Shown here: positions 5,902 to 60,391 of the stretch, piece after piece
How the letters are laid out: each line of letters begins with the position of its first letter
Numbering within the stretch: position 1 is the stretch's first letter
Assembly: GCF_031458235.1 (NCBI RefSeq)
Contig: NZ_JAVDYB010000001.1
Span: forward strand, 6,638,501 to 6,702,500
Length of the DNA stretch: 64,000 nucleotides
From: Catenuloplanes atrovinosus
GTDB lineage: Bacteria; Actinomycetota; Actinomycetes; Mycobacteriales; Micromonosporaceae
Reading direction: 5' to 3'
Position numbers and translations under genes: made by a program
Notes under the pieces: model-generated
The model's database searches: none
Seen by the model: only the letters and a program-made list of their open reading frames with translations
Told to the model about the DNA's origin: nothing

Positions 5902-5906
5902 GCCGC

Positions 5907-42520: not shown

Positions 42521-42844
42521 TCAGACCGGCCAGGCGCCCTGGATCAGCGCGTCGTTCGCGTCGTCGGTGGCGGTGACGCGCCGGACCGCGACGGTGGCCG
42601 ACACGCCCAGATCCTCCACCTGCGCGCCCAGGTCCTCCGTGGCCGCCAGCACGCGGGCCTCGACGGCGCGGTACCGCGCCTCGAAGGCCGCACCGATCTC
42701 GTCGGCCCCCCAGGGCGGCGCCGCGGAGAGCGCCTGGATCCGGGTGCCCGCCGCACGCGCCCGCCCCAGCAACTCGGCACCCGCGTCGGCCAGGTCGTGC
42801 GCGGCCCGCCCCGCCCGCGCCACCTCAACACGCACGTCACTCAT
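42521..42844 (-). CDS. WXG100-superfamily-like small protein
   Basis: 107 residues from ATG 42844. Almost wholly helical and Ala-rich: VEVARAGRAAHDLADAGAELLGRARAAGTRIQAL, a W-G turn (APPWGADEIGAAFEARYRAVEARV), then a second helix (ATEDLGAQVEDLGVSATVAVRRVTATDDAN). A helix-W-x-G-helix hairpin of about 100 residues suits the WXG100/ESAT-6 type secreted by type VII systems, though the motif here is WGA. Its ATG overlaps the stop of the last 74-base micro-ORF, whose GGAGGA serves as ribosome binding site. Confidence 0.65.
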   Translation of the reverse strand: MSDVRVEVARAGRAAHDLADAGAELLGRARAAGTRIQALSAAPPWGADEIGAAFEARYRAVEARVLAATEDLGAQVEDLGVSATVAVRRVTATDDANDALIQGAWPV

Positions 42845-42918
42845 GCCGCGCCGTCCTCCATGCTGCGGAATCCGTGTGGTCGGCGCTGAGCCGATGACTC
42901 GCTCGCACGCTCGCTCAT
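42841..42918 (-). CDS. 25-residue micro-ORF, copy 4 of array 1
   Basis: Starts MSERASESSAQRRPHGF and ends MEDGAA; most diverged copy (Leu4 to Arg, Val to Met, Pro to Ala). Its TGA overlaps the WXG100-like ATG (ATGA), and its codons contain the GGAGGA that precedes that start. Whether the peptide itself is functional is unknown. Confidence 0.55.
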   Translation of the reverse strand: MSERASESSAQRRPHGFRSMEDGAA

Positions 42919-42992
42919 GCCGGACCGTCCTCCACGCTGCGGTATCCGTGTGGTCGGCGCTGAGCCGATGACTCACTCGCAAGCTCGCTCAT
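42915..42992 (-). CDS. 25-residue micro-ORF, copy 3 of array 1
   Basis: Starts MSELASESSAQRRPHGY, ends VEDGPA. Start and stop each overlap the neighbouring copy by 4 bases; GGAGGA lies 9 bases before its start in the preceding copy. Confidence 0.55.
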   Translation of the reverse strand: MSELASESSAQRRPHGYRSVEDGPA

Positions 42993-43066
42993 GCCGGACC
43001 GTCCTCCACGCTGCGGAATCCGTGTGGTCGGCGCTGAGCCGATGACTCACTCGCAAGCTCGCTCAT
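42989..43066 (-). CDS. 25-residue micro-ORF, copy 2 of array 1
   Basis: Starts MSELASESSAQRRPHGF, ends VEDGPA. Differs from copy 3 at one codon (Phe for Tyr at residue 17). Coupled on both sides by ATGA. Confidence 0.55.
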   Translation of the reverse strand: MSELASESSAQRRPHGFRSVEDGPA

Positions 43067-43140
43067 GCCGGACCGTCCTCCACGCTGCGGTATCCGTGTG
43101 GTCGGCGCTGAGCCGATGACTCGCTCGCAAGCTCGCTCAT
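43063..43140 (-). CDS. 25-residue micro-ORF, copy 1 of array 1
   Basis: Starts MSELASESSAQRRPHGY, ends VEDGPA. Its ATG overlaps the stop of the YbaB-like gene, whose own C-terminus is S-E-D-G-P-A, so the unit's end copies the host gene's end. Confidence 0.55.
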   Translation of the reverse strand: MSELASESSAQRRPHGYRSVEDGPA

Positions 43141-43541
43141 GCCGGGCCGTCCTCAGATGCCGGGCCGAACCGGGGAAACGCGCCGGTGGTCAGGAAGGAC
43201 ATGGCGGCGCTGTGCGGCGGGAGGTGGTCGGCGAGCAGGTGCTGGACCGCGTCGGCCGCGTCCGCGGTGGCCAGGCCCACCAGGCGGGTGATCTCGTCGG
43301 CCAGTTCGTGCGGCGCGTACGCCCGGTAGGCCCGCGCCTCGATCTCCAGCGAGGTGAGCTGGCCGCGCGGCCCCACGGTGACCCGGATCAGCTCGTGCGT
43401 GTCGGTCGCGGAGGCGGACAGCTCGGCGAGGCTCGCCTGCAACTCCGCCATGCCGTCGCGGAGGCGCTCGTACTGCCCGTAGACGTCCGCGAAGCGGGCC
43501 TTGAGCGCGGCGTTCGCGTCGCGGTCGACGTGCTGGGCCAC
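43137..43541 (-). CDS. YbaB/EbfC family nucleoid-associated-like protein
   Basis: 134 residues from GTG 43541, with GGGGGAGGGG about 8 bases upstream. A coiled-coil helix (NAALKARFADVYGQYERLRDGMAELQASLAEL) then THELIRVTVGPRGQLTSLEIEARAYRAYAPHELADEITRLVGLATADA, the beta-strand and helix plan of YbaB DNA-binding proteins. Actinobacterial relatives are often encoded with WXG100-like proteins, as in this operon. DNA binding is inferred. Confidence 0.8.
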   Translation of the reverse strand: MAQHVDRDANAALKARFADVYGQYERLRDGMAELQASLAELSASATDTHELIRVTVGPRGQLTSLEIEARAYRAYAPHELADEITRLVGLATADAADAVQHLLADHLPPHSAAMSFLTTGAFPRFGPASEDGPA

Positions 43542-43622
43542 CGGCCATCCCCTCCCCCTGGTGCGGCGTGCCGACCATACCGGGCCGTGTCGAACGGCGA
43601 GGTCCACGGTTGGCACCGCGGG

Positions 43623-43636
43623 GTGACCTGGGTCAC
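43623..43636. promoter_or_regulatory. palindrome between YbaB-like and GAF regulator genes
   Basis: GTGACCTGGGTCAC is a 6+2+6 perfect dyad 42 bases upstream of the GAF regulator start and 82 bases upstream of the YbaB-like start. Candidate operator for autoregulation, or for the divergent pair. Confidence 0.45.
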
Positions 43637-43677
43637 GATAGCGATAGTCCGCTGCCAGACACAGGGGAAGGACGTCG

Positions 43678-44964
43678 ATGTCCAACCCGTGGCTCGCCCT
43701 GCACCTCGGTGCCGATCCGGCCGAACGCATCGGCCAGATCCGCCGTGCGCACGACGCGTTCATCAACGGCGGCACGACGTCGCAGGTCAGAAGCGTCGTC
43801 GTGGACTCCTGGCGGCGGTCCGCGGTCGCCTCGGTCGATCCGGACACGACCGCGCCCACCGACCTGACCGACGACGAGCTCGCCGGCTACCGCGCCGCCC
43901 ACCCGCTGGCCCGTGTGCTGCCGCTCTTCCGCGATCTGCTCGGCGGCATCGCGGACGACGGCGAGCACCTGATGGCCGTCTGCGACGCGCGCGGCCGGCT
44001 GCTCTGGGTGGAGGGCCACGCCGCGGTGCTGCGCAGCGCCGCCGCGATGAACTTCGTGCCCGGCGCCCGCTGGGACGAGCGCCACGCCGGCACGAACGCG
44101 CCCGGCACCGCGCTCGCGGTCGACCACTCCGTGCAGATCTTCGCCACCGAGCACTTCAGCCGCCCTGTCCAGCGCTGGACGTGCGCCGCCGCCCCGATCC
44201 ACGACCCCGCCTCCGGCCGCCTGCTCGGTGCCGTCGACCTCACCGGCGGCGACCACCTCGCCACCCCGCACAGCCTCGCGCTGGTCACCGCCACCGCCCG
44301 CGCCGCCGAGGCGCTGCTGGCCACGCCGGCCGGGGACCACGCTCCCGCCGTGACCGCGCTCGGCCGCGACGAGGCGGTGCTGACCGTGGCCGGCCGCCGT
44401 ACCCGCCTGGGCCGGCGGCACAGCGAGTTGCTGGCGCTGCTGCTGTGCCACCCCGAGGGCCGTACCGGCGAGCAGTTGGCGCTCGACCTCTACGGCGAGG
44501 ACCTCCAGGCCCCGGTCACGCTCCGCGCCGAACTCTCCCGGCTGCGCCGCACGCTCGGCCCCGCGCTGGTCGGCTCCCGCCCGTACCGGATAGAACCCGG
44601 CGTCACCGCCGACTTCCTCACCCTCCCCCGCCTGCTGGACGCCGGCCTGATCGGCGAGGCCCTCGACGCGTACGCCGGCCCGCTCCTGCCCGCCTCCGAC
44701 GCCCCCGGCGTCGTCCGGCTGCGCCGTTCCCTCGACGACCGCCTCCGCACCGCTGTGCTCGAGTCCGGCGATCCGGCCCTGCTCGACACCTGGGTACGCA
44801 CCGAATGGGCCACCGACGACCTCCAAGCCTGGGAGGCCCTCGCCCACGTCCTCCCCCCGCACTCCCCCCGCCACACCCTCGCCCTCGCCCACATCCACAC
44901 CCTCACCCGCGAATACGGCCTCCGGAGCAACACGGCGCGGCGGCGGTCAGGAAAGCAGGAGTGA
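43678..44964 (+). CDS. GAF-domain transcriptional regulator with winged-helix C-terminus
   Basis: 428 residues. N-terminal segment [28 protein letters not shown] and [10 protein letters not shown] as in AcoR-like activators, a GAF domain (about 80-225, [44 protein letters not shown] and [31 protein letters not shown]), then a winged-helix (about 235-310, [34 protein letters not shown]) and a helical tail. It lacks the sigma-54 ATPase of true AcoR. The same architecture accompanies ExaC aldehyde dehydrogenases in actinobacteria, so control of the 40514-42411 pair is likely. Convergent with lysE, overlapping it by 18 bases. Confidence 0.85.
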
Positions 44965-45540
44965 GAGGGCGAGAGCGGTCATGACCGCGGCGATGAGGGC
45001 GTCGACGACGCGCCAGGCGGAGGGGCGGGCGAGCAGGGGGGCGAGGCGGGTGGCCCCGAAGCCGAGGGCGGTGAACCAGGTGGCGCTGGCCGCCGCGGCA
45101 CCGGCGCCGAAGAGCCACTGCTGCGGGTCCTGGTTGGCGATGGCGCCGAGGAGCACGACCGTGTCCAGGTAGACGTGCGGGTTGAGGAACGTGAAGGCGA
45201 GGCAGGCGAGCAGCGTGGTGCGGAGCGTCGCGGGCGGGCGGTCGAGCGGGCTGAGCGTGCCGGGGCGCAGCGCCCGGCGGGCGGCCAGCACCGCGTAGCC
45301 GAGCAGGAACGCGGCGCCGCCCCACCGGACGGCCGTGAGCGCGGCGGGCGCCTGGGTGAGGAGCGCGCCGAGGCCGGCGATGCCCGCGGTGATCAGCACC
45401 GCGTCGGAGACCGCGCACACCGCGACGACCGCGAGCACGTGTTCCCGGCGCAGGCCCTGGCGCAGCACGAACGCGTTCTGCGCGCCGATCGCGACGATCA
45501 GCGTGAGCGAGAAGCCGAAGCCGGCGAGGACGGATGCCAT
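44947..45540 (-). CDS. lysE: LysE/ArgO family basic amino acid exporter
   Basis: 197 residues with about six transmembrane helices. LysE signature: [44 protein letters not shown] near the N-terminus and [21 protein letters not shown] in the middle. Exports lysine and arginine. Divergent from its usual LysR-type activator across 69 bases, the classic lysE-lysG arrangement. Confidence 0.94.
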
Positions 45541-45609
45541 GACCCGACGCTAGGCGCGACCCCGCATGCACTCCAGCTAAAGATTGTGAAGGACCATTAG
45601 GATCGCTTA

Positions 45610-46485
45610 ATGGCGCTGGATCCGGTGCAGCTCGCGACGTTCCACGCGGTGGTCGCGCACGGCAGCTTCGACGCGGCCGCGCGCGCTCTGCACGTCACGC
45701 CGTCCGCGGTGAGCCAGCGGATCAAGGCGCTGGAACGGGTGGTCGGCCAGGTGCTGGTGCGCCGGGCCCGGCCGTGCGAGCCGACCGCGGCCGGGCAGTC
45801 GCTGGTCCGGCTCGGCGGCCAGATCGCACTGCTGGAGCGGGAGGCGCTGGACGCGGCGCGGGGCGCGCTGACCGGCCGGGCGCGGGTGGCCGTGGTGGTC
45901 AACGCGGACTCGCTCGCCTCCTGGTTCGTGCCCGCGCTCACGGCCGTACCCGATGCGGTCTTCGATCTGCACACGGACGACGAGGGCCACACGGCGGACC
46001 TGTTGCGCGCCGGGACCGTGATGGCGGCGGTGACCACGGAGCGGGTCGCGGTGCAGGGCTGCCGGGTCCGGCGGCTCGGCGCGATGCGCTATCTCGCGGT
46101 CGCGGCGCCGGCCGTGCACGAGGCCTGGTTCGCCGGCCGCGACCTGGCGGAGGCGCTGGCCGAGGCGCCGATGGTGCGGTTCAACCGCAAGGACCTGCTC
46201 CAGCACCGGTTCGCCCGGGAGGTGTCCGGCCGCGACCTGGATCCGCCGGCGCACTGCGTGCCGGCGTCGTCCGCGTTCGACACGGCGGTCCGGCTCGGGC
46301 TCGGCTGGGGCCTGCTGCAGGAGCGGTCCGCGGCCGAGGACGTGGCGGCGGGGCGCCTGATCGACCTCGCCCCCGGGCGGTACGTGGACGTCCCGCTCTA
46401 CTGGCAGTGCTGGCGCCTGGAGTCCGCGGTGCTGGACGCGCTGACCACGGCGGTCCACGACGCGGCCGCGACCGCCCTGCGCTGA
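45610..46485 (+). CDS. argP: LysR family activator ArgP/LysG
   Basis: 291 residues. N-terminal winged helix MALDPVQLATFHAVVAHGSFDAAARALHVTPSAVSQRIKALERVVGQVLVRR, then an effector domain with VVVNADSLASWFVPAL, FDLHTDDEGHTADLLRAGTVMAAVTTE. This is the ArgP/LysG/IciA group, which senses lysine or arginine and activates the exporter gene; the adjacent divergent lysE supports it. Confidence 0.93.
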   Translation: MALDPVQLATFHAVVAHGSFDAAARALHVTPSAVSQRIKALERVVGQVLVRRARPCEPTAAGQSLVRLGGQIALLEREALDAARGALTGRARVAVVVNADSLASWFVPALTAVPDAVFDLHTDDEGHTADLLRAGTVMAAVTTERVAVQGCRVRRLGAMRYLAVAAPAVHEAWFAGRDLAEALAEAPMVRFNRKDLLQHRFAREVSGRDLDPPAHCVPASSAFDTAVRLGLGWGLLQERSAAEDVAAGRLIDLAPGRYVDVPLYWQCWRLESAVLDALTTAVHDAAATALR

Positions 46486-46599
46486 CCGGCGGCCCCGGGA
46501 TGATCAGGAAATCTCCGGGTCAACCCGGATGAAATCTTCGCTCACCGTCTGAGACGGTCGGGGTGCACATCAGTGACTCCGCCCTGATGCGACGGGGCG

Positions 46600-47787
46600 A
46601 TGAGCGGACGGAGGCACAACCCGGTGCGACATCTCAGAACTTCGATCGGTGCCACCCTGGCCGTGCTGCTGCTCACGGCCGCGTGCGCCACCTCGGCCGG
46701 CGACGAGCCGGACTCGGCCGCGGCACCGGCCACGAGCGGCGCGCACGGCCACGAGTACCAGGAGCCGCCGCCCGCGGCGCCGCTGCGCGAGGGTGAGCGG
46801 TTCCAGGAGTTGACCATGGAGCGGGCGTACTCGCCGCGGGCACCGGAGGGCGCCACCGACGAGTACCGCTGCTTCATGATCGACCCGGCGCTGACCGAGC
46901 CCGCGTTCCTCACCGGCAGCCAGTTCCTGCCGCAGAACCACCAGTTGGTGCACCACGCGATCTTCTTCCGGCTGGAGCCGGACCAGGTGGTGGACGCGGA
47001 GAAGCTGGACGCGGCCGAGGAGGGTGACGGCTGGCGCTGCTTCGGCAACGCCGGGGTCGGCGACGCGGCCTGGGTGGCGCACTGGGCGCCGGGCGCGGAC
47101 GAGGTGCTGCTGGACCAGAAGGTCGGCTACCCGATGACGCCGGGCAGCCGGCTGGTCATGCAGATCCACTACAACCTGCTGGCCACCGGCGGGGACGCGG
47201 CGGCGAGCGACCGATCCAGCATCCGGCTGCGACTGTCCACGGACGACCTCACGCCGCTGCGGACCGGGCTGCTGACCGCGCCGGTCGAGCTGCCGTGCGC
47301 GCCCGGCGAGTCCGGGCCGCTGTGCGACCGGGCCGCGGCCGTCGCGGACGTGACCAAGCGGTTCGGCGCCGAGGCCGGGCAGACGGTCGAGCAGCTGAAC
47401 AAGTGGTGCAACGACGGCAATACGCCGCGGCAGGGCCCGTCGCAGAGCTGCGTGCAGCCGGTCGAGGAGCCGATGACCGTCTACGCGGTGGCCGGTCACA
47501 TGCACCTGCTGGGCCGCGCGATCTCGGTGGAGCTGAACCCGGGCACGCCGCAGGCGCGGAAGCTGCTGGACATCCCCGCGTACGACTTCGACGACCAGGC
47601 GATCCGCCCGCTGGACGCGCCGGTCCAGCTGAAGGCGGGCGACACGCTGAAGGTCAGCTGCACGCACGACGCCACGCTCCGGCAGCAGCTGCCGGCGCTG
47701 CAGGACCTGCCGCCGCGGTACGTGGTCTGGGGCGAGGGCACCAGCGACGAGATGTGCCTCGGCATCCTGGTGGCGGGCGCGGCCTAG
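46600..47787 (+). CDS. copper type II monooxygenase-like lipoprotein
   Basis: 395 residues. Signal peptide with lipobox TAAC (Cys 29), so surface-anchored. Motifs match the peptidylglycine/dopamine monooxygenase fold: QLVHHAIFF (His118-His119), VMQIHYN (His190), GHMHLLG (His300, His302) and DEMCLG (Met385), i.e. CuH and CuM ligand sets in the right order, with several Cys for disulfides. In animals these enzymes hydroxylate C-H bonds with ascorbate and O2; the bacterial substrate is unknown. The stop overlaps the convergent tetR stop. Confidence 0.75.
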   Translation: MSGRRHNPVRHLRTSIGATLAVLLLTAACATSAGDEPDSAAAPATSGAHGHEYQEPPPAAPLREGERFQELTMERAYSPRAPEGATDEYRCFMIDPALTEPAFLTGSQFLPQNHQLVHHAIFFRLEPDQVVDAEKLDAAEEGDGWRCFGNAGVGDAAWVAHWAPGADEVLLDQKVGYPMTPGSRLVMQIHYNLLATGGDAAASDRSSIRLRLSTDDLTPLRTGLLTAPVELPCAPGESGPLCDRAAAVADVTKRFGAEAGQTVEQLNKWCNDGNTPRQGPSQSCVQPVEEPMTVYAVAGHMHLLGRAISVELNPGTPQARKLLDIPAYDFDDQAIRPLDAPVQLKAGDTLKVSCTHDATLRQQLPALQDLPPRYVVWGEGTSDEMCLGILVAGAA

Positions 47788-48383
47788 CGGGGACGCAGCC
47801 GGGCGAGGAAGGCCTCCAGAACCGCGGGCATGTCGACCGTGTCTCGGTCGAGCAGCCACTGGATCTGGAGGCCGTCCATCAGCGCGACCAGGGACACCGC
47901 GGTCGCGTCCACGTCGACGTCGGCCGCGAGCCGGCCGTCCGCCTTCGCCTCGCGCAGCGCGTCGGCCATCAGCTCGCGGATCCGGCGGTACCGGCCGACG
48001 AAGAACCCGTGCGCCGGGTGCTCCTCGGCGACCGCCTCGCCGGACAGCGTGGCGTAGAGCTGGACCAGGCCCGGCACGGTGGCGTTGTGCCGGACCAGCT
48101 CGGTCACCGCCTCCAGGAACGCCCAGCCGCGCTCGCCGTCGAGCCGGCGCTGGTCCGCGTCGTCCCGCTGGTCGAGCACCTCGGCGAGCAGCTGCTCCTT
48201 GGACGAGAAGTGGTGCAGCAGTCCGGCCTGGGTGAGCCCGACGCCGTCCGCGATCTCCTTCAGCGAGCCGCCGCGGTAACCGGACTCGGCGAACACCACG
48301 ACGGCGTGCCGCAGGATCTCCGCGCGCTTGGCGCGGCCCTTGGTGTAGCTGCCGCGGACCCGCCGGGCGTTCCCCTCAGTCAC
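47784..48383 (-). CDS. TetR family regulator
   Basis: 199 residues from GTG 48383 (no clear ribosome binding site; GTG 48389 and 48425 are alternatives). Helix-turn-helix GRAKRAEILRHAVVVFAESGYRGGSLKEIADGVGLTQAGLLHHFSSKEQLLAEVL, then a ligand domain. Divergent from the first GH16-like gene across 139 bases, so it may control it. Ligand unknown. Confidence 0.9.
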   Translation of the reverse strand: MTEGNARRVRGSYTKGRAKRAEILRHAVVVFAESGYRGGSLKEIADGVGLTQAGLLHHFSSKEQLLAEVLDQRDDADQRRLDGERGWAFLEAVTELVRHNATVPGLVQLYATLSGEAVAEEHPAHGFFVGRYRRIRELMADALREAKADGRLAADVDVDATAVSLVALMDGLQIQWLLDRDTVDMPAVLEAFLARLRPR

Positions 48384-48522
48384 GAACACCGAGCGTAGTC
48401 GGGCGCGCAACGAAGCGACCGGCACGCTAAACCATTCTTAGGAGACTCTGAAGGATCTTGACTCCGGTGGATCCCTCGACCAGCCTTCGGCGAGGCGAGA
48501 TCCCCTCGAGTCAGGAGCACAG

Positions 48523-49482
48523 GTGCATTCACGATCTTCACGGGTACGGATGGGCGTGCTCACGGCCGCGGCCGTGGTCACCGCCGCCGGCGGTCTGGTC
48601 GTGACGGGCAACGCGTTGGCCGGGACCGACGCCACGACGACGGCGGCGGCGTGCGGCGCGTTCTTCGACGACTTCATCTACTCGTCCACCGCGGACGCCG
48701 CGTTCACCGCGCACCGCTGGCGCACCCGCGGATACGCGGGCGGGCCGGGCGTGCCGGGCGCGACCTGGTCCGCCGCGAACGTCTCGTTCACCGATGTGGA
48801 CGGTCAGCGCGTCGCGCAGCTGCGGGGTTCCACGGACGGCACCGCGGCCGGGACCACGCAGGCGGAGTTCTACCAGACCGAACGGCGGTTCTTCGAGGGC
48901 ACGTACGCGGCGCGGATCAAGCTCTCCGACACGCCGGTCAGCGGCCCGGACGGCGACCACGTCAACCAGACGTTCTTCGCGATGGGGCCGGTCCAGCGCT
49001 TCGACTACGACCCGCTCTATTCGGAGCTGGACTTCACCGAGTACCTGCCGAACGGCGGCTGGGGCACCGCCGGCCCGACCAACTACCAGACCAGCTACAA
49101 CGGGTTCCGGGCCGACCCGTGGGACCCGTACAACGCCAGCGACGCGCAGGACGGCAGCCTGGCCGGCTGGCACACGATCGTCGGTCAGGCCGTGGACGGC
49201 CGGGTGACGTACTTCGTGGACGGCGTGCGGGTCGCCGAGCACACGGTGGACTACAAGGACGGTTCCCGCTCGGTCTTCCCGCGGGTGGAGATGGGCCTGA
49301 ACTTCAACCTGTGGTTCATCGACCTGGCCGGGCACTCCGGCGGCCGGGCGACGTACCAGGAGCACGTGGACTGGGTCTACTACGCCGACGAGGAGGCCGT
49401 CTCCCCGGCCGAGTTGGAGGCGCGCACCGCCGCCTACCGCAGCGCCGGCACCGCGCGTGCGGACACGCTCGGCTCCTGCTGA
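48523..49482 (+). CDS. secreted GH16-like glycoside hydrolase (copy A, no binding module)
   Basis: 319 residues, GTG start with AGGAG 5 bases upstream. Signal peptide to about residue 34. A concanavalin-like beta-sandwich with the GH16-type catalytic pattern E-L-D-F-T-E (168-173) in YSELDFTEYLPNGGW, and WHTIVGQAVDGRVTYFVDG, NLWFIDL. Very similar to the GH16-like gene at 53435 but without linker and binding domain. GH16 enzymes cut beta-glycans; the substrate here is unknown, though the linked chitin-binding module and GH20 suggest an amino-sugar polymer. Confidence 0.78.
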   Translation: MHSRSSRVRMGVLTAAAVVTAAGGLVVTGNALAGTDATTTAAACGAFFDDFIYSSTADAAFTAHRWRTRGYAGGPGVPGATWSAANVSFTDVDGQRVAQLRGSTDGTAAGTTQAEFYQTERRFFEGTYAARIKLSDTPVSGPDGDHVNQTFFAMGPVQRFDYDPLYSELDFTEYLPNGGWGTAGPTNYQTSYNGFRADPWDPYNASDAQDGSLAGWHTIVGQAVDGRVTYFVDGVRVAEHTVDYKDGSRSVFPRVEMGLNFNLWFIDLAGHSGGRATYQEHVDWVYYADEEAVSPAELEARTAAYRSAGTARADTLGSC

Positions 49483-49513
49483 CCCGGCGACCCGACGGGA
49501 GCGGCGCCGTGAC

Positions 49514-50254: not shown

Positions 50255-50260
50255 AATTTC

Positions 50261-50342
50261 CCACTGGTAAAGCAAAAACCGGTGAAAGTCGACCCTATGT
50301 GAACCCTATAGATCTGTAAGGAGTCTTGACTTTTACCAGTGG
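50261..50342. promoter_or_regulatory. inverted-repeat operator pair for GntR
   Basis: CCACTGGTAAA (50261-50271) and TTTACCAGTGG (50332-50342) are exact inverted copies flanking the divergent promoter region of the GntR and ABC genes. The ACTGGT..ACCAGT half-sites resemble the DasR-type consensus (ACTGGTCTAGACCAGT). A related ACCGGTGAAAG lies at 50279-50289. TTGAC (50326-50330) may be a -35 box. Confidence 0.55.
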
Positions 50343-50394
50343 TTGGACCACCGTTCTCCCAACGCGAGACACCCTCACCCCTGGGGAGAACATC

Positions 50395-51648: not shown

Positions 51649-51653
51649 CCGGC

Positions 51654-52595: not shown

Positions 52596-53410
52596 CCCGC
52601 CGCGCGCTGGTCAACACCGCCTGCCTGCTGGTCGCGGCGCTGTTCGTCTTCCCGGTCTACTGGATGGCGTCGACCGCGTTCAAGCCGGACGCGGACATCG
52701 TCAGCCACCCGCCCCGGTTCGTGCCCTGGCCGATCGAGCTGGACCACTTCGGCCGGGTGCTCGGCGACGCCGGGTTCTGGGCAGCGCTGCGCAGCTCGCT
52801 CACCGTCACCGTGACCGTGGTGACGGCCGGGACACTCGTCGCGCTGATGGCCGCGGTAGCGCTGGCCCGCTTCACGTTCCGCGGCCGGACCGGCTTCGTG
52901 CTCGCGCTGATCATCGTGCAGATGATCCCGGGCGAGGCGCTGTTCATCCCGTTCTACCTGATGCTGCGCGAGACGCACCTGCTCGGGCAGTTGGCCGGGC
53001 TGATGCTGGTCTACCTGTCGATCACCGTGCCGTTCACCGCGTGGATGCTGCGCGGGTTCGTCGCCTCGATCCCGGTGGACCTGGAGGAGGCCGCGGCCGT
53101 GGACGGCGCGAGCCGCTGGCAAGCGTTCTGGCGGGTGCTGTTCCCGCTGGTCGCGCCGGGCCTGCTGGCCACCTCGATCTTCTCGTTCATCACGGTCTGG
53201 ACCGAGTTCACCTACGCGTACGTCCTGATCAACGATCCGCGGAACTACCCGCTCCCGATCTACATCCAGTCGTTCATCGGGCGCGACGACGTCGACTACG
53301 GGCCGCAGATGGCGGTCGCCTTCCTGTTCACGCTCCCGGTCGTCGTCTTCTTCCTCCTGGTCCAGCGGCGGGCCGTTGCCGGCATGAGCGCCGGCGCCGT
53401 CAAGGGCTGA
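52592..53410 (+). CDS. sugar ABC transporter permease (MalG type)
   Basis: 272 residues, six transmembrane helices. N-terminal LVAALFVFPVYWMASTAFKPDADI, EAA loop ASIPVDLEEAAAVDGASRWQAFWRVLFPLVAPGLLATSIFSFI (near 155-195). ATG overlaps the previous stop by 4 bases. Confidence 0.93.
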   Translation: MTRRALVNTACLLVAALFVFPVYWMASTAFKPDADIVSHPPRFVPWPIELDHFGRVLGDAGFWAALRSSLTVTVTVVTAGTLVALMAAVALARFTFRGRTGFVLALIIVQMIPGEALFIPFYLMLRETHLLGQLAGLMLVYLSITVPFTAWMLRGFVASIPVDLEEAAAVDGASRWQAFWRVLFPLVAPGLLATSIFSFITVWTEFTYAYVLINDPRNYPLPIYIQSFIGRDDVDYGPQMAVAFLFTLPVVVFFLLVQRRAVAGMSAGAVKG

Positions 53411-53434
53411 CCTCCTCACCCCCAAAGGAGAGCC

Positions 53435-54607
53435 ATGAATTCGGCACGAACCGCAGCGCTCGCCGCTGCCGCCCTGGTCACCGCCGCCGGTGGGCTGATA
53501 GCCACCGGAAACGCGTCCGCCTCGACCGCGGCCGCCGCCTGCGGCGTGCTGTTCGACGACTTCAACTACACGTCGCCGTCGGACAGCGCGTTCACCGGGC
53601 ACGGCTGGACCGCGCGCAACAACCCGGGCGGCCCCGGCGTGCCCGGCGCCACCTGGTCCGCGGCGAACATCTCGTTCCCGACCGTGGACGGGCAGAAGGT
53701 GGCGCAGTTGCAGGCGTCCACGGACGGCACCGCCGCCGGCACCACGCACGCGGAGTTCCTGCAGACCGAGCGACGCTTCTTCGAGGGCACGTACGCGGCG
53801 CGGATCAAGTTCTCCGACGCGCCGGTCAGCGGCCCGGACGGCGACCACATCAACGAGACGTTCTTCGCGATCGGGCCGGCCCAGCGGTACGACTACGACC
53901 CGCTCTACTCCGAGCTGGACTTCTCCGAATACCTGCCGAACGGCGGGTGGGGCGTCGAGGGGTCGATCAACTATCAGACCAGCTGGAACGGGTACCGGGA
54001 GAACCCGTGGGACCCGTACAACGCGCACTCCCAGCAGCCGGGCAGCCTGGCCGGGTGGCACACCGTGATGGGCCAGGTCGCGAACGGGCACGTGAAGTAC
54101 TTCATCGACGGCGTGCAGGTGGGCGACCACACGGTGTCGGAGAAGGACCCGGCCTGGACGGTCTACCCGCGCGCGGCCATGTCCATCAACTTCAACCTGT
54201 GGTTCATCGACCTGGCCGCGCACACCGGCGGGCGGGCCACGTACCAGGAGCACGTGGACTGGGTCTACTACGCGAAGAACGAGTCCGTCTCGCCGGCCGA
54301 CCTGACCGCGCGCACCTCCGCGTACCGCAGCGCCGGCACCGTGCACCAGGACACGCTCGCCACCGGCGGCTGCCCGACCGGCCCGACCGCCACGCCCGGC
54401 TCGCCCACGCCGCCGCCCACCGCCACCTCGTCCCCGACGCCTCCGCCGCCCACCTCGTGCGCCGGCGCGAACCCGTGGGCGTGGGGCACGGTCTACCAGG
54501 CCGGTGACCGGGTCACCCACGCCGGCCGCCTGTGGCAGGCCAACTGGTGGACGCAGGGCTCCGAGCCCGGCCTCACCGCCCAGTGGCGCGACCTCGGTAC
54601 CTGCTAG
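53435..54607 (+). CDS. secreted GH16-like glycoside hydrolase with CBM5/12-type module (copy B)
   Basis: 390 residues. AAAGGAGAG 7 bases upstream. Signal peptide to about residue 30, GH16-like catalytic region with E-L-D-F-S-E (160-165), a Pro/Thr linker (about 308-340) and a C-terminal CBM5/12-type chitin-binding module: NPWAWGTVYQAGDRVTHAGRLWQANWWTQGSEPG..WRDLG (aromatic triplet). Paralogue of the gene at 48523. In an operon with the importer (25-base gap), so its products are likely taken up by it. Activity on chitin-like or other glycans is inference. Confidence 0.85.
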   Translation: MNSARTAALAAAALVTAAGGLIATGNASASTAAAACGVLFDDFNYTSPSDSAFTGHGWTARNNPGGPGVPGATWSAANISFPTVDGQKVAQLQASTDGTAAGTTHAEFLQTERRFFEGTYAARIKFSDAPVSGPDGDHINETFFAIGPAQRYDYDPLYSELDFSEYLPNGGWGVEGSINYQTSWNGYRENPWDPYNAHSQQPGSLAGWHTVMGQVANGHVKYFIDGVQVGDHTVSEKDPAWTVYPRAAMSINFNLWFIDLAAHTGGRATYQEHVDWVYYAKNESVSPADLTARTSAYRSAGTVHQDTLATGGCPTGPTATPGSPTPPPTATSSPTPPPPTSCAGANPWAWGTVYQAGDRVTHAGRLWQANWWTQGSEPGLTAQWRDLGTC

Positions 54608-54620
54608 AGCTCTTCCACCG

Positions 54621-54653
54621 CGCCGCCCCTTCCCTACTCTGGAAGGGGCGGCG
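54621..54653 (+). terminator. 13-bp hairpin between GH16-like and GH20 genes
   Basis: CGCCGCCCCTTCC (54621-54633) pairs perfectly with GGAAGGGGCGGCG (54641-54653) around CTACTCT. It lies 14 bases past the GH16-like stop and 20 bases before the GH20 start; either terminator or partial attenuator inside the operon. Confidence 0.7.
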
Positions 54654-54673
54654 TCACCCACCCAGGAGACCTC

Positions 54674-56230
54674 ATGCTGATCCCACGTCCCGTCTCGATC
54701 TCGGACAGCGCGGGCTCGTTCGCGCTCACCCCCGCGACCGCGATCCACGCGCCGGACGCGCCCGAGGTCGCCGCGCTGCTGCGCGAGCTGCTCACCCCGG
54801 TCACCGGCCTGCCGCTGCCGGACACCGGCACGCCTGGGCCGGACACCATCGCGCTGCGCGTCACGCCGGACGCCACCGACCTCGGCACCGAGGGCTACCG
54901 GCTGGAGGTCTCCCGGTCCGGCGTGACCGCCGCCGCGCCGGGAGCCGCCGGGCTGCGCTGGGCCGTGCAGACCCTCCGCCAGCTGCTGCCGGTCGAGGCG
55001 TACGCGCCGGACCGCCGGGACGTGCCGTGGACCGTCACCGGCGTGTCCATCGTCGACACGCCGCGCTATCCCTGGCGCGGGCTGCTGGTCGACGTGGGCC
55101 GCTGGCACAAGCCGGTCTCCTGGCTGCGCCGCGTCGTGGACCTGCTCGCCATGCACCGGATGAACGTGCTGCACCTGCACCTCACCGAGGACCAGGGCTG
55201 GCGGTTCGAGGTGCGTAAGCACCCGCGGCTGACCGAGGTGGGGGCGTTCCGCCGCGCGTCGCCGCGCGGCCACGAGACCGAGAACCGCTCCGACGACACG
55301 CCGCACGGCGGCTTCTACACCCAGGACGAACTGCGCGACCTGGTCGCCTACGCCGCCCGGCGCGGCGTCACGATCGTGCCCGAGATCGACCTACCCGGTC
55401 ACATGCAGGCCGCCATCGCCGCGTACCCCCACCTCGGCAACGCTCCGGACGACCCGCCCGAGGTCTGGACCCGGTTCGGCGTCAGCGACCGCGTGCTCAA
55501 CGTCGAGGACGGCACGGTCGCGTTCGTCCGGGACGTGCTGGACGAGCTGATGGACGTCTTCCCCGGCCCGTGGATCCACCTCGGCGGCGACGAGGTCCCG
55601 CTCACCGAGTGGGAGTCCTCGCCCGCCGCCGCGCGCCGGATCGCCGCCGAGGGGCTCACCGGCCCGGCCGACCTGCTCGGCTGGTGGATCCGGCAGGCCG
55701 CCGCGCACGTCACCCGGGCCGGCCGCCGCCCGGTGCTCTGGGACGAGTTGGTCGGGCAGCACGCGCCCGCGGACGCCGTCGTGATGGCCTGGCGGGGCCA
55801 CGACCGGATCGCCGAGGGCCTGCTCGACGGGCACGACGTGATCGCCACCCCGCACGAGCACCTCTACCTCAACTACCCGGCCTCGGACGCCGCGTCCGAG
55901 CCGCTGTCGATCCGGGACGGCTACGCCGCCGCGCACGGCCCCACCACGCTCGACCACGTGTACGCGTACCGCCCGCAGCCCGCCGGCCTGCCGTCCGACC
56001 TGCCGACCCGGGTGGTCGGCGTCCAGGCCAACATGTGGTGCGAGTACGCGCCCACGCCGGACCGGGCCGAGTACGACCTGCTGCCCCGGCTGTCCGCGGT
56101 CGCCGAGGTCGCCTGGGGCACCCCGGACTCCCTACCCGCGTTCCACACCCGCCTCTCCACCCACCTCCGCCGCCTGGACGCGGCCGGCTACCGCTACCGG
56201 CCGCTGGACGGGCCCGGGCTCACTCCGTGA
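54674..56230 (+). CDS. beta-N-acetylhexosaminidase, GH20
   Basis: 518 residues, AGGAG 5-6 bases before ATG. N-terminal domain (GH20b, to about 130), then a TIM barrel with RYPWRGLLVDVGRWHKPVSWLRRVVDLLAMHRMNVLHLHLTEDQGWR and the catalytic Asp-Glu in IHLGGDEVP (Asp306-Glu307). Cleaves terminal GlcNAc or GalNAc from oligomers. No signal peptide seen, so a cytosolic role on imported oligosaccharides is likely. Ends overlapping the DUF1963 gene by 11 bases, tail to tail. Confidence 0.95.
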   Translation: MLIPRPVSISDSAGSFALTPATAIHAPDAPEVAALLRELLTPVTGLPLPDTGTPGPDTIALRVTPDATDLGTEGYRLEVSRSGVTAAAPGAAGLRWAVQTLRQLLPVEAYAPDRRDVPWTVTGVSIVDTPRYPWRGLLVDVGRWHKPVSWLRRVVDLLAMHRMNVLHLHLTEDQGWRFEVRKHPRLTEVGAFRRASPRGHETENRSDDTPHGGFYTQDELRDLVAYAARRGVTIVPEIDLPGHMQAAIAAYPHLGNAPDDPPEVWTRFGVSDRVLNVEDGTVAFVRDVLDELMDVFPGPWIHLGGDEVPLTEWESSPAAARRIAAEGLTGPADLLGWWIRQAAAHVTRAGRRPVLWDELVGQHAPADAVVMAWRGHDRIAEGLLDGHDVIATPHEHLYLNYPASDAASEPLSIRDGYAAAHGPTTLDHVYAYRPQPAGLPSDLPTRVVGVQANMWCEYAPTPDRAEYDLLPRLSAVAEVAWGTPDSLPAFHTRLSTHLRRLDAAGYRYRPLDGPGLTP

Positions 56231-57143
56231 ACGCGGTGTAGGAGAGCGCCCGGTCGAACCGCCCGGCGGCCAGATCCTCGTGGCGGATGATGAATCGTCC
56301 GATGTAGACGTCCTCGGGATAGAACTGCATCAGCGGCACCCACTCGCGCATCACCCGGACCGTCTCCCGCTCCAGCCACAGGGCGCTCTCCCCCGGCGGG
56401 ATACTCACCTCGCCGGCCTTCTCCCGGGCCGCGATCGCCTCCTCGGCGATCCTGGTCTCCGGCGTGGTGTACATGACGTCGGTGGCCAGCTCGCCGATGA
56501 CCCAGGAGTGGCCGCCGAGCGAGATCTCGGGGTCGCGGCGGTCCGGCCACAGCTCGTCGGCCAGCGCCACCAGCTCGGCCAGGTGCGGCAGGTCGCGCGC
56601 CAGGTGCGCCTGGTCGCCGTCGCGCGTGCTCTCCACGTCGTCGCCGTCCCCCAGCCACTCGGGCAGCTCCGCGGCGACCACGGCGCGCAGCTCGCGCCTC
56701 GGGGCCACGAAGTCGAGCGTCATGTTGTTGAACACGATCTCCGCGTGCTCGGGCTCCTCCGCGATGACCGTGTCGGTGCCGGCCGGCACGTGAACGACCC
56801 GCGCGTGCTTCTGCTCACCGGCGACCGAGTACTCCTCGTAGGCGTCCTCGTGGTGCAGGAAGAACAGCAGCGAGCCGTCCGCCGGCAGCGCCAGGCCGTC
56901 GACCCGGGGCAGCGCCGCGCAGTCGATGGACGCGACGAACGGCAGCGGCCCGTACTCGCCGGACGGCCACTCCATGCCGACCGGCAGCCGGGGCAGCCCG
57001 CCGCGCTGCCCGGCCGGGACGCCGTCGTCGTAGTGCGCGCCGGTCCAGATCGCGAACCGGAGGAACTCGGCGAACCTGTCGACCTCACCGTCCGGGATGC
57101 CCCGGTCGGTCGCGGCACGACGGAATTGTCGTTGATAGTCCAT
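56220..57143 (-). CDS. DUF1963 (YwqG-like) protein
   Basis: 307 residues. DUF1963 pattern: GVPAGQRGGLPRLPVGMEWP near 42-62, LPFVASIDCAALPRVDGLALPADGSLLFFLHHED, then LGGHSWVIGELATD. Soluble, acidic. Function of the family unknown. 36 bases downstream of the polyamine operon's last gene and on the same strand; it may be read from it. Confidence 0.85.
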   Translation of the reverse strand: MDYQRQFRRAATDRGIPDGEVDRFAEFLRFAIWTGAHYDDGVPAGQRGGLPRLPVGMEWPSGEYGPLPFVASIDCAALPRVDGLALPADGSLLFFLHHEDAYEEYSVAGEQKHARVVHVPAGTDTVIAEEPEHAEIVFNNMTLDFVAPRRELRAVVAAELPEWLGDGDDVESTRDGDQAHLARDLPHLAELVALADELWPDRRDPEISLGGHSWVIGELATDVMYTTPETRIAEEAIAAREKAGEVSIPPGESALWLERETVRVMREWVPLMQFYPEDVYIGRFIIRHEDLAAGRFDRALSYTAFTE

Positions 57144-57179
57144 GGCGCGGCATGGTGCCAGATCGATGCGAACGCCGCC

Positions 57180-58565
57180 TTACCGCCGGATGCCCATCCC
57201 CAGTCGGCGCACGGTGCGCAGCCACAGGTCCGGCCGCCCCTCGTGGTCGTCCGCGCGGGCCAGCGACCGGCGGGTGAGCGTGATCGCCAGCGTCCGCGCC
57301 GGCTCCGGCGGGAACGGCACCGGCTTCCGGCGCACCGTGGCCAGCTCGGTCAGCTCGGTGCGCCGGCCGCTGAGCAGGTCGAGACTGACCCGCGCGGCGA
57401 ACCGGGTGGCGGAGACGCCGAGCCCGGTGAAGCCCGCGGCGTAGGCCACCTTGCCGCCGTACGCGGTGCCGTGGAACGCGAAGAAGCGGGTGCAGGTGTC
57501 GACCGCACCACCCCACCGGTGGCTGAACCGCACGTCCGCGAGCTGCGGGAACGTGACGGCGAAGCGCCGGGCGAGCGTCTCGAACGAGGCCCGGCGCTGG
57601 GCCAGCACGGGCGCCGTCCGGCCGCCGGCGTGGAAGATCGGGTCGTACCCGCCGAACAGGATTCGGTGGTCCCGCGTGATCCGGTAGTAGTGGAACCGGT
57701 TACCCAGGCCGGAGACGCCCTGCCGCCGCCGCCAGCCGATCGAGGCGAGCTGCGGCGCGGTGAGCGGCTCGGTCATCAGCGCGTAGTCGTAGACCGGGGC
57801 GACGAAGTGCCGCAGGCGGCGCAGCAGCGGCGGGAACGCGTTGGTGGCGAGGATCGCCCGGCCGGCCCGGACCGCGCCGTGCGGGGTGGTCAGCCGGACC
57901 GCCGCGCCCTCGTCGGACAGGCCGGTGACCCGGGTGTGCTCGTGGATGCGGACGCCCTGCTCCAGGCAGACGCGGCGCAGGCCCCAGGCCAGCCGGGCCG
58001 GGTCCACCAGCGCGGTGCCGCGCCGGTCCCAGGCGGCGTAGAGATAGGTCGGCGAGTCCAGCTCGGCGCGGACCGCGGCGGAGTCGAGCAGGCGGACAGT
58101 GCGGCCGTACGCCATGGCCAGCACCGCGCTCTCGGCGAGCTGCGTCACCTGGTACGCCTCGGTCGCGACCTTCAGCTCCCCGGAGCGCACGAAGTCGCAG
58201 TCGATGCCGTGCCGCGCCACCGTCGCCTCGATCGCGTCCAGGTTCTCGGTGCCGAGCCGTTCCAGCGTGACCAGGTCGTCCGGGAACCGGGCGCGCCCGT
58301 TGGCCAGGCCGCCGGTGAGGCTGGTGGCGCAGAACCCGCCGTTGCGCCCGGACGCGGCCCAGCCGCAGGTGCCCGCCTCCAGCACCACCACGTCGCGCGC
58401 CGGGTCGTCCTGCTTGGCCAGCAGCGCGGCCCACAGTCCGGCGTACCCGCCGCCGACGATCGCCAGGTCCGCGGTCCGGACGCCGGACAGCGGCGGCAGC
58501 GGGTCCGGGCGTTCCGGCCGGTCCAGCCAGTACGGGATCGGCGCCGCGTCGCGCAGCGTCCTCAT
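57180..58565 (-). CDS. FAD-dependent amine oxidase (PuuB/DAO type)
   Basis: 461 residues from ATG 58565, overlapping the potC stop by ATGA. FAD Rossmann motif TADLAIVGGGYAGLWAALLA and VVVLEAGTCGWAASGRNGGFC (ASGRNGG is typical for gamma-glutamylputrescine oxidase-like enzymes), and C-terminal YAAGFTGLGVSATRFAARV. Being the last gene of the polyamine importer operon supports oxidation of a polyamine or glutamyl-polyamine to an aldehyde. Exact substrate not shown. Confidence 0.88.
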   Translation of the reverse strand: MRTLRDAAPIPYWLDRPERPDPLPPLSGVRTADLAIVGGGYAGLWAALLAKQDDPARDVVVLEAGTCGWAASGRNGGFCATSLTGGLANGRARFPDDLVTLERLGTENLDAIEATVARHGIDCDFVRSGELKVATEAYQVTQLAESAVLAMAYGRTVRLLDSAAVRAELDSPTYLYAAWDRRGTALVDPARLAWGLRRVCLEQGVRIHEHTRVTGLSDEGAAVRLTTPHGAVRAGRAILATNAFPPLLRRLRHFVAPVYDYALMTEPLTAPQLASIGWRRRQGVSGLGNRFHYYRITRDHRILFGGYDPIFHAGGRTAPVLAQRRASFETLARRFAVTFPQLADVRFSHRWGGAVDTCTRFFAFHGTAYGGKVAYAAGFTGLGVSATRFAARVSLDLLSGRRTELTELATVRRKPVPFPPEPARTLAITLTRRSLARADDHEGRPDLWLRTVRRLGMGIRR

Positions 58566-59335
58566 GACCGCCGGCGCCGGTTGATGATCTCCCCGGCCAC
58601 CACGACGATCACCGCGATCAGGAACATCGCCGTCCCGATCACGTTGACCTGCGGCGGGATGCCGCGCTGCGCGGCGCCCCACACGTACATCGGGAACGTG
58701 ACCGTGGTGCCGGAGTTGAAGTTCGTGATGATGAAGTCGTCGAAGGAGAGCGAGAACGACAGCAGCGCGGCGGCCACGATACCGGGCGCGACCAGCGGCA
58801 GCGTGATCCGGCGGAACGTCTGCCACTCGCCGGCGTAGAGGTCCATCGCGGCCTCCTCCAGCGCCGGGTCCAATCCGGCCAGCCGCGCCTTCACCGTCAC
58901 CACGACGAACGACACGCAGAACATCACGTGCGCGATCACCACGGTCCAGAAGCCGAGCGGGACGCCACCGGCCACGAACAGCGCCAGCAGCGACGAGCCC
59001 ATCACCACCTCGGGCGTGGCCATCGGCATGAAGATCAGCAGGTTGGTCGCGGACCGGCCGCGGAACCGGTGCCGGGCCAGCGCGAACGCCATCAGCGTGC
59101 CGAGCACCGTGGCGATCAGCGTGGCCAGCAGCGCGATCTGGACGCTGCGGCCGACCGCGTCGCACATGTCGCCCGGGCCGCACGGGTTGGCCCAGTTGTC
59201 CAGCGTGAACCGGTGGAAGTCGTAGGACAGCCGGCTGCTCGGCTCGTTGAACGACAGCGCGGCCACCACGAAGATCGGCAGGAACAGGTAGAGCAGGACC
59301 AGCAGGCCGACGGCGAGGACCCAGTTGCGCCTCAC
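58562..59335 (-). CDS. potC: polyamine ABC transporter permease PotC
   Basis: 257 residues from GTG 59335, overlapping the potB stop by GTGA. Six transmembrane helices; LFLPIFVVAALSFN near the start, RHRFRGRSATNLLIFMPMATPEVVMGSSLLALF, EAA loop LDPALEEAAMDLYAGEWQTFRRITLPLVAPGI, and DDFIITNFNSGTTVTFPMYVW, characteristic of PotC. Confidence 0.93.
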   Translation of the reverse strand: MRRNWVLAVGLLVLLYLFLPIFVVAALSFNEPSSRLSYDFHRFTLDNWANPCGPGDMCDAVGRSVQIALLATLIATVLGTLMAFALARHRFRGRSATNLLIFMPMATPEVVMGSSLLALFVAGGVPLGFWTVVIAHVMFCVSFVVVTVKARLAGLDPALEEAAMDLYAGEWQTFRRITLPLVAPGIVAAALLSFSLSFDDFIITNFNSGTTVTFPMYVWGAAQRGIPPQVNVIGTAMFLIAVIVVVAGEIINRRRRS

Positions 59336-60243
59336 AGCACCTCCTCCGTGCCGGATCGGCGCACGTAGACGAGCACGATCGCCAGGATCGCGGCCATCAG
59401 GATGAACGACAGCGCGGCGGCCTGCGGGTAGTCCAGCCGCACCAGGAACGCCGAGTCGATCACGTTGCCGATCATGTACTGCCGGGGCGTGCCGAGCAGT
59501 TCCGCGTTGATGTAGTCGCCGGTCGCCGGGATGAACGTCAGCAGCGTGCCGGCCACCACGCCGGGCATGCTGAGCGGCAGCGTGACCCGGAAGAACGTGC
59601 TGACCGGGCCGGCGTAGAGATCGCTCGCGGCCTCCAGCACGCGACGGTCCAGCCGCTCCAGGTTCGCGTAGAGCGGCAGCACCATGAACGGCAGGAAGTT
59701 GTAGACCAACCCCATGATCACCGCGGTCGGCGTGGCCAGCAGCCGGCCGTCCGCACCGAGCAGGTGCACCGCGCGCAGCACCTCGACCACCGCGCCGTTG
59801 TCCGACAGGATCGTCTTCCAGGCCAGCGTGCGGACCAGGAAGCTGGTGAAGAACGGCGCGATCACCCCGACCAGCATCAGGTTCCGCCAGCGACCGGCGC
59901 GGTGCGCGATCGCGTACGCCAGCGGGTAGCCGAGCAGCAGGCAGATCGCGGTGGCCGCGGCCGCGTAGCCGATCGACCGCAGGAAATGCCACCGGTACGC
60001 CTCCAGCGCGGCCGGGTAGTTGCCGAACGACCAGGTCATCGCGTACCCGGTGGTCAGCGACCCGCTCGGGTCGTAGAGGCTGGTCGCGCCGAGCTGCACC
60101 AGCGGGATCACGAAGAAGACCAGCAGCCACAGCCCGGCCGGAAGCATCAGCAGGTACGGCAGCCACCGCCGGCGCCGCCCCGAGCGCGGCGGGGCCGGCG
60201 GCGTGTTCGCCCCCACCCCGGCCCCGATCGCCGCGACGCTCAT
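59332..60243 (-). CDS. potB: polyamine ABC transporter permease PotB
   Basis: 303 residues. ATG 60243 overlaps the stop of the second micro-ORF (ATGA). Six transmembrane helices; LPYLLMLPAGLWLLVFFVIPLVQLGATSLYDPSG, FFTSFLVRTLAWKTIL (PotB hallmark), EAA loop DRRVLEAASDLYAGPVSTFFRVTLPLSMPGV and TGDYINAELLG. Confidence 0.93.
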   Translation of the reverse strand: MSVAAIGAGVGANTPPAPPRSGRRRRWLPYLLMLPAGLWLLVFFVIPLVQLGATSLYDPSGSLTTGYAMTWSFGNYPAALEAYRWHFLRSIGYAAAATAICLLLGYPLAYAIAHRAGRWRNLMLVGVIAPFFTSFLVRTLAWKTILSDNGAVVEVLRAVHLLGADGRLLATPTAVIMGLVYNFLPFMVLPLYANLERLDRRVLEAASDLYAGPVSTFFRVTLPLSMPGVVAGTLLTFIPATGDYINAELLGTPRQYMIGNVIDSAFLVRLDYPQAAALSFILMAAILAIVLVYVRRSGTEEVL

Positions 60244-60317
60244 GCTGACTCACCCTCTTCGCTGCGGTTTCGCGGTGGGACGCACTGAGCCGATGATTCG
60301 CTCGCAAGCTCGCTCAT
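60240..60317 (-). CDS. 25-residue micro-ORF, copy 2 of array 2
   Basis: Starts MSELASESSAQCVPPRN, ends EEGESA. Stop overlaps the potB ATG; GAGGGTGAG inside it is the likely potB ribosome binding site. Confidence 0.55.
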   Translation of the reverse strand: MSELASESSAQCVPPRNRSEEGESA

Positions 60318-60391
60318 GCTGACTCACCCTCTCCGCTGCGGTTTCGCGGTGGGACGCACTGAGCCGATGATTCGCTCGCAAGCTCGCTCAT
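60314..60391 (-). CDS. 25-residue micro-ORF, copy 1 of array 2
   Basis: Starts MSELASESSAQCVPPRN, ends GEGESA. ATG overlaps the potA stop. One codon (Gly for Glu at residue 20) separates it from copy 2. Confidence 0.55.
   Translation of the reverse strand: MSELASESSAQCVPPRNRSGEGESA

What the first reader, a model, noticed from the sequence alone, without database searches (positions are those of the whole stretch)
42841..60391. A dispersed family of translational-coupling cassettes
Comparing the arrays: about 33 bases at the 5' end (ATGAGCGAGCTTGCGAGC through GGCTCAG) are conserved, the remaining ~41 bases are locus-specific but keep total length 74 (3n+2, exactly what an ATGA relay needs). 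In array 1 the variable end resembles the end of the host gene (S-E-D-G-P-A). The conserved core contains partly palindromic GAGC...GCTC and GCGAGCTTGC blocks, like REP elements. I propose a REP-like element that spreads into stop-start junctions, captures local sequence and is amplified in tandem. I know of no described system matching this, but cannot search.
Basis: partly seen in the sequence, partly recalled or inferred. Interest (0 to 1): 0.9.

Follow-up and report, generated by a model that had tools for sequence, protein, structure and literature searches.

The report
Mobile stop-start junction repeats, MIRU-like
A soil actinomycete carries many copies of a short DNA element that sits where one gene's stop codon meets the next gene's start codon and carries its own tiny reading frame, so that translation could pass through it into the next gene; tuberculosis bacteria have a known element of this kind (MIRU), and this looks like a separate, larger family of the same sort.

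Summary
The repeats are real. In the host genome (a Catenuloplanes, inferred) I recovered 154 units in 68 arrays, a lower bound. A typical 74-bp unit starts with ATGA, encodes 25 aa (MSELASESSAQRRP...) and ends at the next ATGA. Period and unit head agree with the reading frame: 42 of 42 steps of 74 bp begin DTGA; 32 of 37 steps of 75 bp have lost DTGA and read on in frame. 65 of 68 arrays run unbroken into a GC3-supported downstream ORF (control frame 23 of 68); 48 of 68 start on the stop codon of a gene-like upstream ORF. In four same-genus genomes, 15 of 29 orthologous junctions lack the element and show DTGA; 13 are filled, 1 is a possible remnant. Near-identical tails at distant loci show dispersal. 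Relatives read the same nucleotide core in three different frames, so DNA rather than peptide is mainly conserved. The genome has no Y1_Tnp (TnpA-REP), so REP/RAYT is not supported. The architecture matches the mycobacterial interspersed repetitive unit (MIRU; passage in PMC12548453). I file it as a non-mycobacterial MIRU-type element. Sequence homology to MIRU, actual translation and the transposition machinery were not tested.

The parts
43067..43140 (-). Array 1, unit 1 (74 bp); mini-ORF 43063-43140, MSELASESSAQRRPHGYRSVEDGPA
42993..43066 (-). Array 1, unit 2 (74 bp); mini-ORF 42989-43066
42919..42992 (-). Array 1, unit 3 (74 bp); mini-ORF 42915-42992
42845..42918 (-). Array 1, unit 4 (74 bp); mini-ORF 42841-42918, its stop overlaps the start of the downstream gene
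43137..43550 (-). Upstream host gene of array 1, YbaB/EbfC family (PF02575); its TGA lies in the ATGA of unit 1; the 5' end of the gene is not settled
42521..42844 (-). Downstream host gene of array 1, 107 aa, no Pfam match; element-free orthologous junction seen in G003 (L130)
60318..60391 (-). Array 2, unit 1 (74 bp); mini-ORF 60314-60391, MSELASESSAQCVPPRNRSGEGESA
60244..60317 (-). Array 2, unit 2 (74 bp); mini-ORF 60240-60317, its stop overlaps the start of the permease gene
60388..61515 (-). Upstream host gene of array 2, ABC transporter ATPase with TOBE_2 (375 aa)
59332..60243 (-). Downstream host gene of array 2, ABC transporter permease (BPD_transp_1, 303 aa); the junction is empty in G002, G003 and G004 and filled by another tail type in G001

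Best explanation
The repeats are a MIRU-type mobile element family. A unit inserts at a DTGA stop-start (or start) site, giving ATGA-unit-ATGA, so the upstream gene keeps its stop codon, the unit's own 25-codon frame can be translated, and its TGA overlaps the original start codon of the downstream gene. Unit ends carry Shine-Dalgarno-like stretches before the terminal ATGA. Translation can therefore pass through any number of units by -4 coupling (74-bp units) or, where a unit has become 75 bp and usually lost DTGA, by reading on in frame. Units multiply or shrink in tandem at a site. Location at DTGA, frame preservation, dispersal and local amplification are shown from sequence; translation of the mini-ORFs, the act of transposition (rather than recurrent loss) and its enzyme are inferred.
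For: 154 units in 68 arrays, 29 of them single units; 74-bp steps with DTGA 42 of 42, 75-bp steps without it 32 of 37 (Fisher 3e-17); 82 of 86 steps are 3n+2 or 3n. 48 of 68 first units overlap the stop of an upstream ORF with strong GC3 signal. 65 of 68 arrays run unbroken into a downstream ORF with GC3 of at least 0.85, control frame 23 of 68. Of 29 orthologous junctions in G001-G004, 15 are empty, all at DTGA, 13 filled, 1 a possible remnant; alignment-based insert lengths of shortened units (56, 59, 62, 65 bp) are all 3n+2. Presence patterns of nuoJ and rnc (also pit and nuoJ, argD and rnc) cannot fit one tree without repeated gain or loss. Tails 92-100% identical at different loci, mean 67%. 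Same core in frames 0, 1 and 2. Published MIRU behaviour.
Against: No transposase, terminal inverted repeat or circular intermediate was found; only Y1_Tnp was searched for. 20 of 68 arrays do not overlap a clear upstream stop. Four of 86 steps (73 bp three times, 64 bp once) are 3n+1, and array L036 is scrambled. Recurrent precise loss instead of gain is not excluded. Target duplication cannot be separated from the element's own leading ATGA. A mild excess of synonymous change (142 against 109 expected) leaves room for some peptide constraint. Upstream flank and own tail are slightly alike, which this model does not need.
Confidence: 0.84

Rival explanations
1. REP-like element moved by a REP-associated tyrosine (Y1) transposase.
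For: Relatives with another tail type (C. japonicus, Micromonospora, G019) have an inverted repeat around the terminal start codon (sequences; single folds of two of them, no shuffles run). On the reverse strand only 1 of 100 column shuffles folded as well as the observed alignment, though the fold is three base pairs.
Against: No Y1_Tnp (PF01797) in the genome, which has the most copies of those searched, while 5 of 14 control genomes ring; no significant consensus fold on the coding strand of 57 array representatives (30 of 200 column shuffles as good; 16 of 200 with the junction included, none at all for 88 distinct units).
Confidence: 0.05
2. The mini-ORF peptide is the conserved functional product (a small protein family), and DNA conservation follows from it.
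For: Synonymous changes exceed expectation (142 against 109.4; non-synonymous 212 against 244.6); the peptide is read through in 75-bp arrays.
Against: The same nucleotide core is read as RANHRLS in most of the Micromonospora loci, ERIMGA in G019, SESSAQ in Catenuloplanes (and M. noduli), and one own copy (L058) reads ERIIGS; changes at third positions (140) exceed those at first (96) and second (94) only modestly.
Confidence: 0.06
3. A host-beneficial translation-tuning cassette: copy number sets re-initiation efficiency and thereby the ratio of the two proteins of an operon.
For: Unit ends pair with the anti-Shine-Dalgarno sequence slightly better than native ones (mean -7.4 against -6.6 kcal/mol, 38 of 58 arrays, p = 0.07, not significant); in M. 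tuberculosis longer repeats upstream of fpg went with higher fpg mRNA (PMC2734929, abstract and passages).
Against: Copy number and presence differ erratically between species at the same junction, as expected of a tolerated passenger. Not exclusive of the best explanation.
Confidence: 0.2
4. No mobility: tandem duplication of gene starts plus gene conversion among ATGAGC gene starts.
For: Downstream genes often begin ATGAGC; array units are locally homogenised.
Against: One 34-base core (up to 10 mismatches) at 68 places; orthologous junctions without it; tails nearly identical at loci megabases apart. 29 of 68 arrays are single units.
Confidence: 0.05

Closest known systems
MIRU (mycobacterial interspersed repetitive unit; Supply et al. 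1997, not read, known here through a passage in PMC12548453)
   Same: Short dispersed and tandem repeat; apparently mobile; inserts at start codons; internal ORF coupled to the gene at -4 nt; published unit lengths of 77 and 53 bp (PMC4213456 passage) are 3n+2, like the relay units here; C. japonicus units are 77 bp.
   Different: Another family of actinomycetes; 74/75-bp unit; a second, in-frame 75-bp mode; interchangeable tails. Sequence homology to MIRU not tested. The 55- and 79-bp units of one M. [quoted passage not shown]
REP elements with TnpA-REP (RAYT)
   Same: Short, dispersed, sometimes clustered (recalled).
   Different: No Y1 transposase in the genome, no significant coding-strand fold, lies in gene junctions with open frames.
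52-nt and 20-21-nt bacterial tandem repeats of constant size (Subirana and Messeguer, PMC8161180, passages)
   Same: Constant period with variable sequence.
   Different: [quoted passage not shown] here the period is tied to reading frame and gene junctions.
Rickettsia palindromic elements (recalled, no call)
   Same: Short element tolerated in translated sequence because frame is kept.
   Different: Recalled as insertions inside genes; here at stop-start junctions with own start and stop.

Membership tests
MIRU | dispersed short repeat, single or tandem | tested here: met
   68 arrays of 1-7 units (29 single) in 60 of 63 loci examined
MIRU | internal ORF whose ends overlap the flanking genes by 4 nt | tested here: met
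   downstream 55 of 68 relay into a GC3-supported ORF, 13 scored as fused, of which L021 and L036 in fact relay; upstream 48 of 68; so typical, not universal
MIRU | insertion at start codons (DTGA), with element-free orthologous sites | tested here: met
   15 of 29 orthologous junctions empty, all DTGA; direction of change (gain or loss) not established
MIRU | nucleotide homology to mycobacterial MIRU | not tested
   no MIRU sequence was at hand; the core with up to 2 mismatches is found in 19 of 171 genomes of other families of the order, 16 of them with a single hit (families unnamed)
MIRU | mycobacterial host | tested here: not met
REP/RAYT | Y1 transposase of the TnpA-REP kind in the genome | tested here: not met
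REP/RAYT | palindromic unit with conserved hairpin | tested here: inconclusive
   no significant coding-strand consensus fold in this genome, a three-pair fold on the reverse strand that 1 of 100 shuffles equals; inverted repeats in tails of relatives

The most novel reading that the evidence does not exclude
MIRUs are one branch of a wider actinomycete class of 'translation-transparent' mobile elements whose nucleotide core is kept in whatever reading frame, the only rule being that ribosomes can pass from the upstream to the downstream gene, by -4 relay or in-frame fusion; they home to DTGA sites by an undescribed enzyme and exchange tails.
Probability: 0.35. Interest if true: 0.75.

Novelty: new variant of a known kind. 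Interest (0 to 1): 0.62.

Why it matters
Junction-targeting elements that keep translation going were described for mycobacteria; the passages I saw disagree whether only in M. leprae and the tuberculosis complex (PMC4213456) or in many mycobacteria (PMC12548453). A large family in soil actinomycetes, with species-to-species empty and filled sites, would make the open MIRU questions (how they move, whether copy number tunes operons) testable in harmless organisms. It also accounts for runs of short 'MSELASESSAQ' ORFs and N-terminal extensions that could otherwise be taken for genes.

Tried and rejected
REP/RAYT origin: no Y1_Tnp. Conserved RNA fold: not significant on the coding strand; the explicit pair table used indices off by one and is not relied on. 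Rfam: no match in the window at gathering scores. Carriage on plasmids or phages: no match for a two-unit query. Peptide as the main conserved entity: three frames (one search chose the wrong start for some Micromonospora units and is superseded). Capture of host sequence: weak, see the observation check. In one search control frame +1 is uninformative, since it falls back onto the same ATG, and only frame +2 is used; 'downstream ORF' there means an open frame reaching at least 150 nt beyond 60 nt after the start of the last core, so a few are short (53 aa in L048). Relay lengths printed are 3n+2 by construction; the independent evidence is the alignment-based lengths. The strict gapped pattern in the family (12 of 300 genomes) misses the main Micromonospora form and is a lower bound.

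Not a census: searches list only about the first 100 of 126 and 148 places; 3 of 63 loci (L014, L033, L055) held degenerate copies below my threshold and are not counted. Loci G001-G004 were compared at nine junctions only, of 68 arrays. Papers: eight searches; I saw listings only, for example 15 of 247 papers and 12 of 235, and noticed none on this family in Micromonosporaceae; the library lacks most subscription papers, so this is no proof of absence.

Full report
What is there. Both window arrays exist as described, on the minus strand: four 74-bp units at 42845-43140 between a YbaB-family gene and a 107-aa gene, and two 74-bp units at 60244-60391 between an ABC ATPase and its permease. The core is found genome-wide: 126 hits for the 18-mer at up to 2 mismatches against 1 for the reversed control, 148 against 6 for a second core piece. 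From the listed places I fetched 62 stretches; with the window these gave 154 units in 68 arrays (29 single units, the rest 2 to 7) in 60 of 63 loci. This is a lower bound, because the hit lists were cut and degenerate copies in three loci fell below the threshold.

Host. G001, placed in the same genus by the tool, has contigs of the same lengths as Catenuloplanes japonicus NRRL B-16061, so the window is inferred to be a Catenuloplanes. With a 19-base core piece at up to 2 mismatches the five genomes of the genus have 133 (own), 26, 14, 15 and 9 hits, controls 0.

Frame logic. Among 86 steps between neighbouring units, 42 are 74 bp, and all of these begin with DTGA; 37 are 75 bp, of which 32 have lost DTGA. 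A 74-bp unit therefore ends in a stop that overlaps the next start by 4 nt, whereas a 75-bp unit is read on in frame. By residue, 44 steps are 3n+2, 38 are 3n and 4 are 3n+1; array L036 is scrambled. 65 of 68 arrays run through into a downstream ORF with third-position GC of at least 0.85, the other three into ORFs below that value; the frame +2 control does so in 23 of 68. The first ATGA of 48 of 68 arrays overlaps the stop of a gene-like upstream ORF; the other 20 do not meet that test. In the window I counted roughly 13 DTGA gene-gene junctions, two of them occupied (crude gene calling).

Anatomy. In 94 units of 74 bp from 57 arrays, positions 1-43 (except 11 and 39), a block ACCGC at 50-54 and the closing CGGC are conserved. 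Unit ends carry Shine-Dalgarno-like stretches, about as strong as those before the first unit. No significant consensus fold was found on the coding strand; the reverse strand gave a three-pair fold that 1 of 100 shuffles equalled. Changes in the core are mildly biased to synonymous ones (142 seen, 109 expected).

Mobility. I searched nine joined flank pairs in four same-genus genomes, fetched the places and aligned them. Seven junctions were found in all four genomes, window array 1 in one, and one (L047) in none: 29 orthologous junctions. Downstream genes of the first six are nuoJ, rnc, argD, galK, thymidine phosphorylase (deoA) and a phosphate transporter related to PitA (below its cut-off). 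Fifteen junctions lack the element and show a DTGA junction, including window array 2 in G002, G003 and G004 (with small differences in the tail of the upstream gene) and window array 1 in G003; thirteen are filled, some by degenerate units; one (deoA in G001) may be a remnant. Filled sites differ in copy number and tail type between species and include shortened units of 56, 59, 62 and 65 bp by alignment, 71 bp in G002 and 41 bp in the host genome, all 3n+2; the last two lengths are read from the position of ATGA and are not independent of the rule. At argD in G003 one extra base appears to fuse the unit in frame to the upstream gene; at galK in G002 the core has become the N-terminus of the gene. 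Presence patterns conflict between loci (for example nuoJ and rnc), so gain or precise loss recurs.

Copying. Tails are 93% identical within arrays (98 pairs) and 67% between arrays (4976 pairs), yet some tails are 92-100% identical at different loci: window array 1 and L024, L011 and L070, and two junctions of one Wadjet-like region in L056. This argues for dispersal followed by local amplification, and against capture from the host gene as the general source of the variable end. A small excess of similarity between upstream flank and own tail remains.

Beyond the genus. Exact 19-mer matches occur in Micromonospora, another Micromonosporaceae and Sciscionella marina (the planctomycete and Chitinophaga hits show no such context). 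Micromonospora relay units and the G019 unit are 80 bp, those of C. japonicus 77 bp (one pair reads on in frame), all with a different tail; the core is read in frame 1 in most Micromonospora loci, frame 0 in G019, and frame 2 in C. japonicus and in M. noduli, where the unit is fused to the gene. In the order, the core with up to 2 mismatches occurs in 30 of 200 genomes (control in 1): 11 of 29 in the family, own included, and 19 of 171 outside it, 16 of these with a single hit and three with 3 or 4 (contexts of these not examined).

What it works like and what it is. A 2025 review describes MIRUs as apparently mobile repeats that insert at start codons so that an internal ORF is coupled at -4 nt, which likely limits harm to the gene (PMC12548453, passages). 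Published MIRU lengths of 77 and 53 bp (PMC4213456, passages) are also 3n+2; a repeat of 55 and 79 bp upstream of fpg (PMC2734929, passages) is not. The original 1997 paper is not held; that it named DTGA as target is my recollection. Site choice and architecture match MIRU; homology of sequence was not tested, and the host is not a mycobacterium. I therefore file it as a new variant of a known kind. The enzyme that moves it is unknown; no Y1 transposase is present.

Noticed in passing
L056 1231-5794 (minus), host genome near 5.97 Mb: Two arrays that share an unusual tail lie 3.3 kb apart, one of them between JetA and JetB homologues (PADLOC; TIGR02677/TIGR02678) of a Wadjet-like defence region.
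   Followed up: partly
L091 (Sciscionella marina), minus strand near 5887-6040: The same core forms four 30-bp in-frame repeats at the N-terminus of a gene, without the tail.
   Followed up: partly
window 18705-19007: A 118-bp tandem repeat of 2.7 copies, unrelated to the finding.
   Followed up: no
window 38456-39113: Several short tandem repeats with periods of 15, 24, 42 and 84 bp, overlapped by a long minus-strand ORF.
   Followed up: no
L094, L100, L101 (Micromonospora), L080 (G019): Tails with an inverted repeat that would pair the terminal start codon region with an upstream TCATG, a possible start-codon hairpin (sequences; L100 folded).
   Followed up: partly
G428, G349, G462 (other families of the order): Three or four near matches of the core each, outside the family; contexts not looked at.
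   Followed up: no
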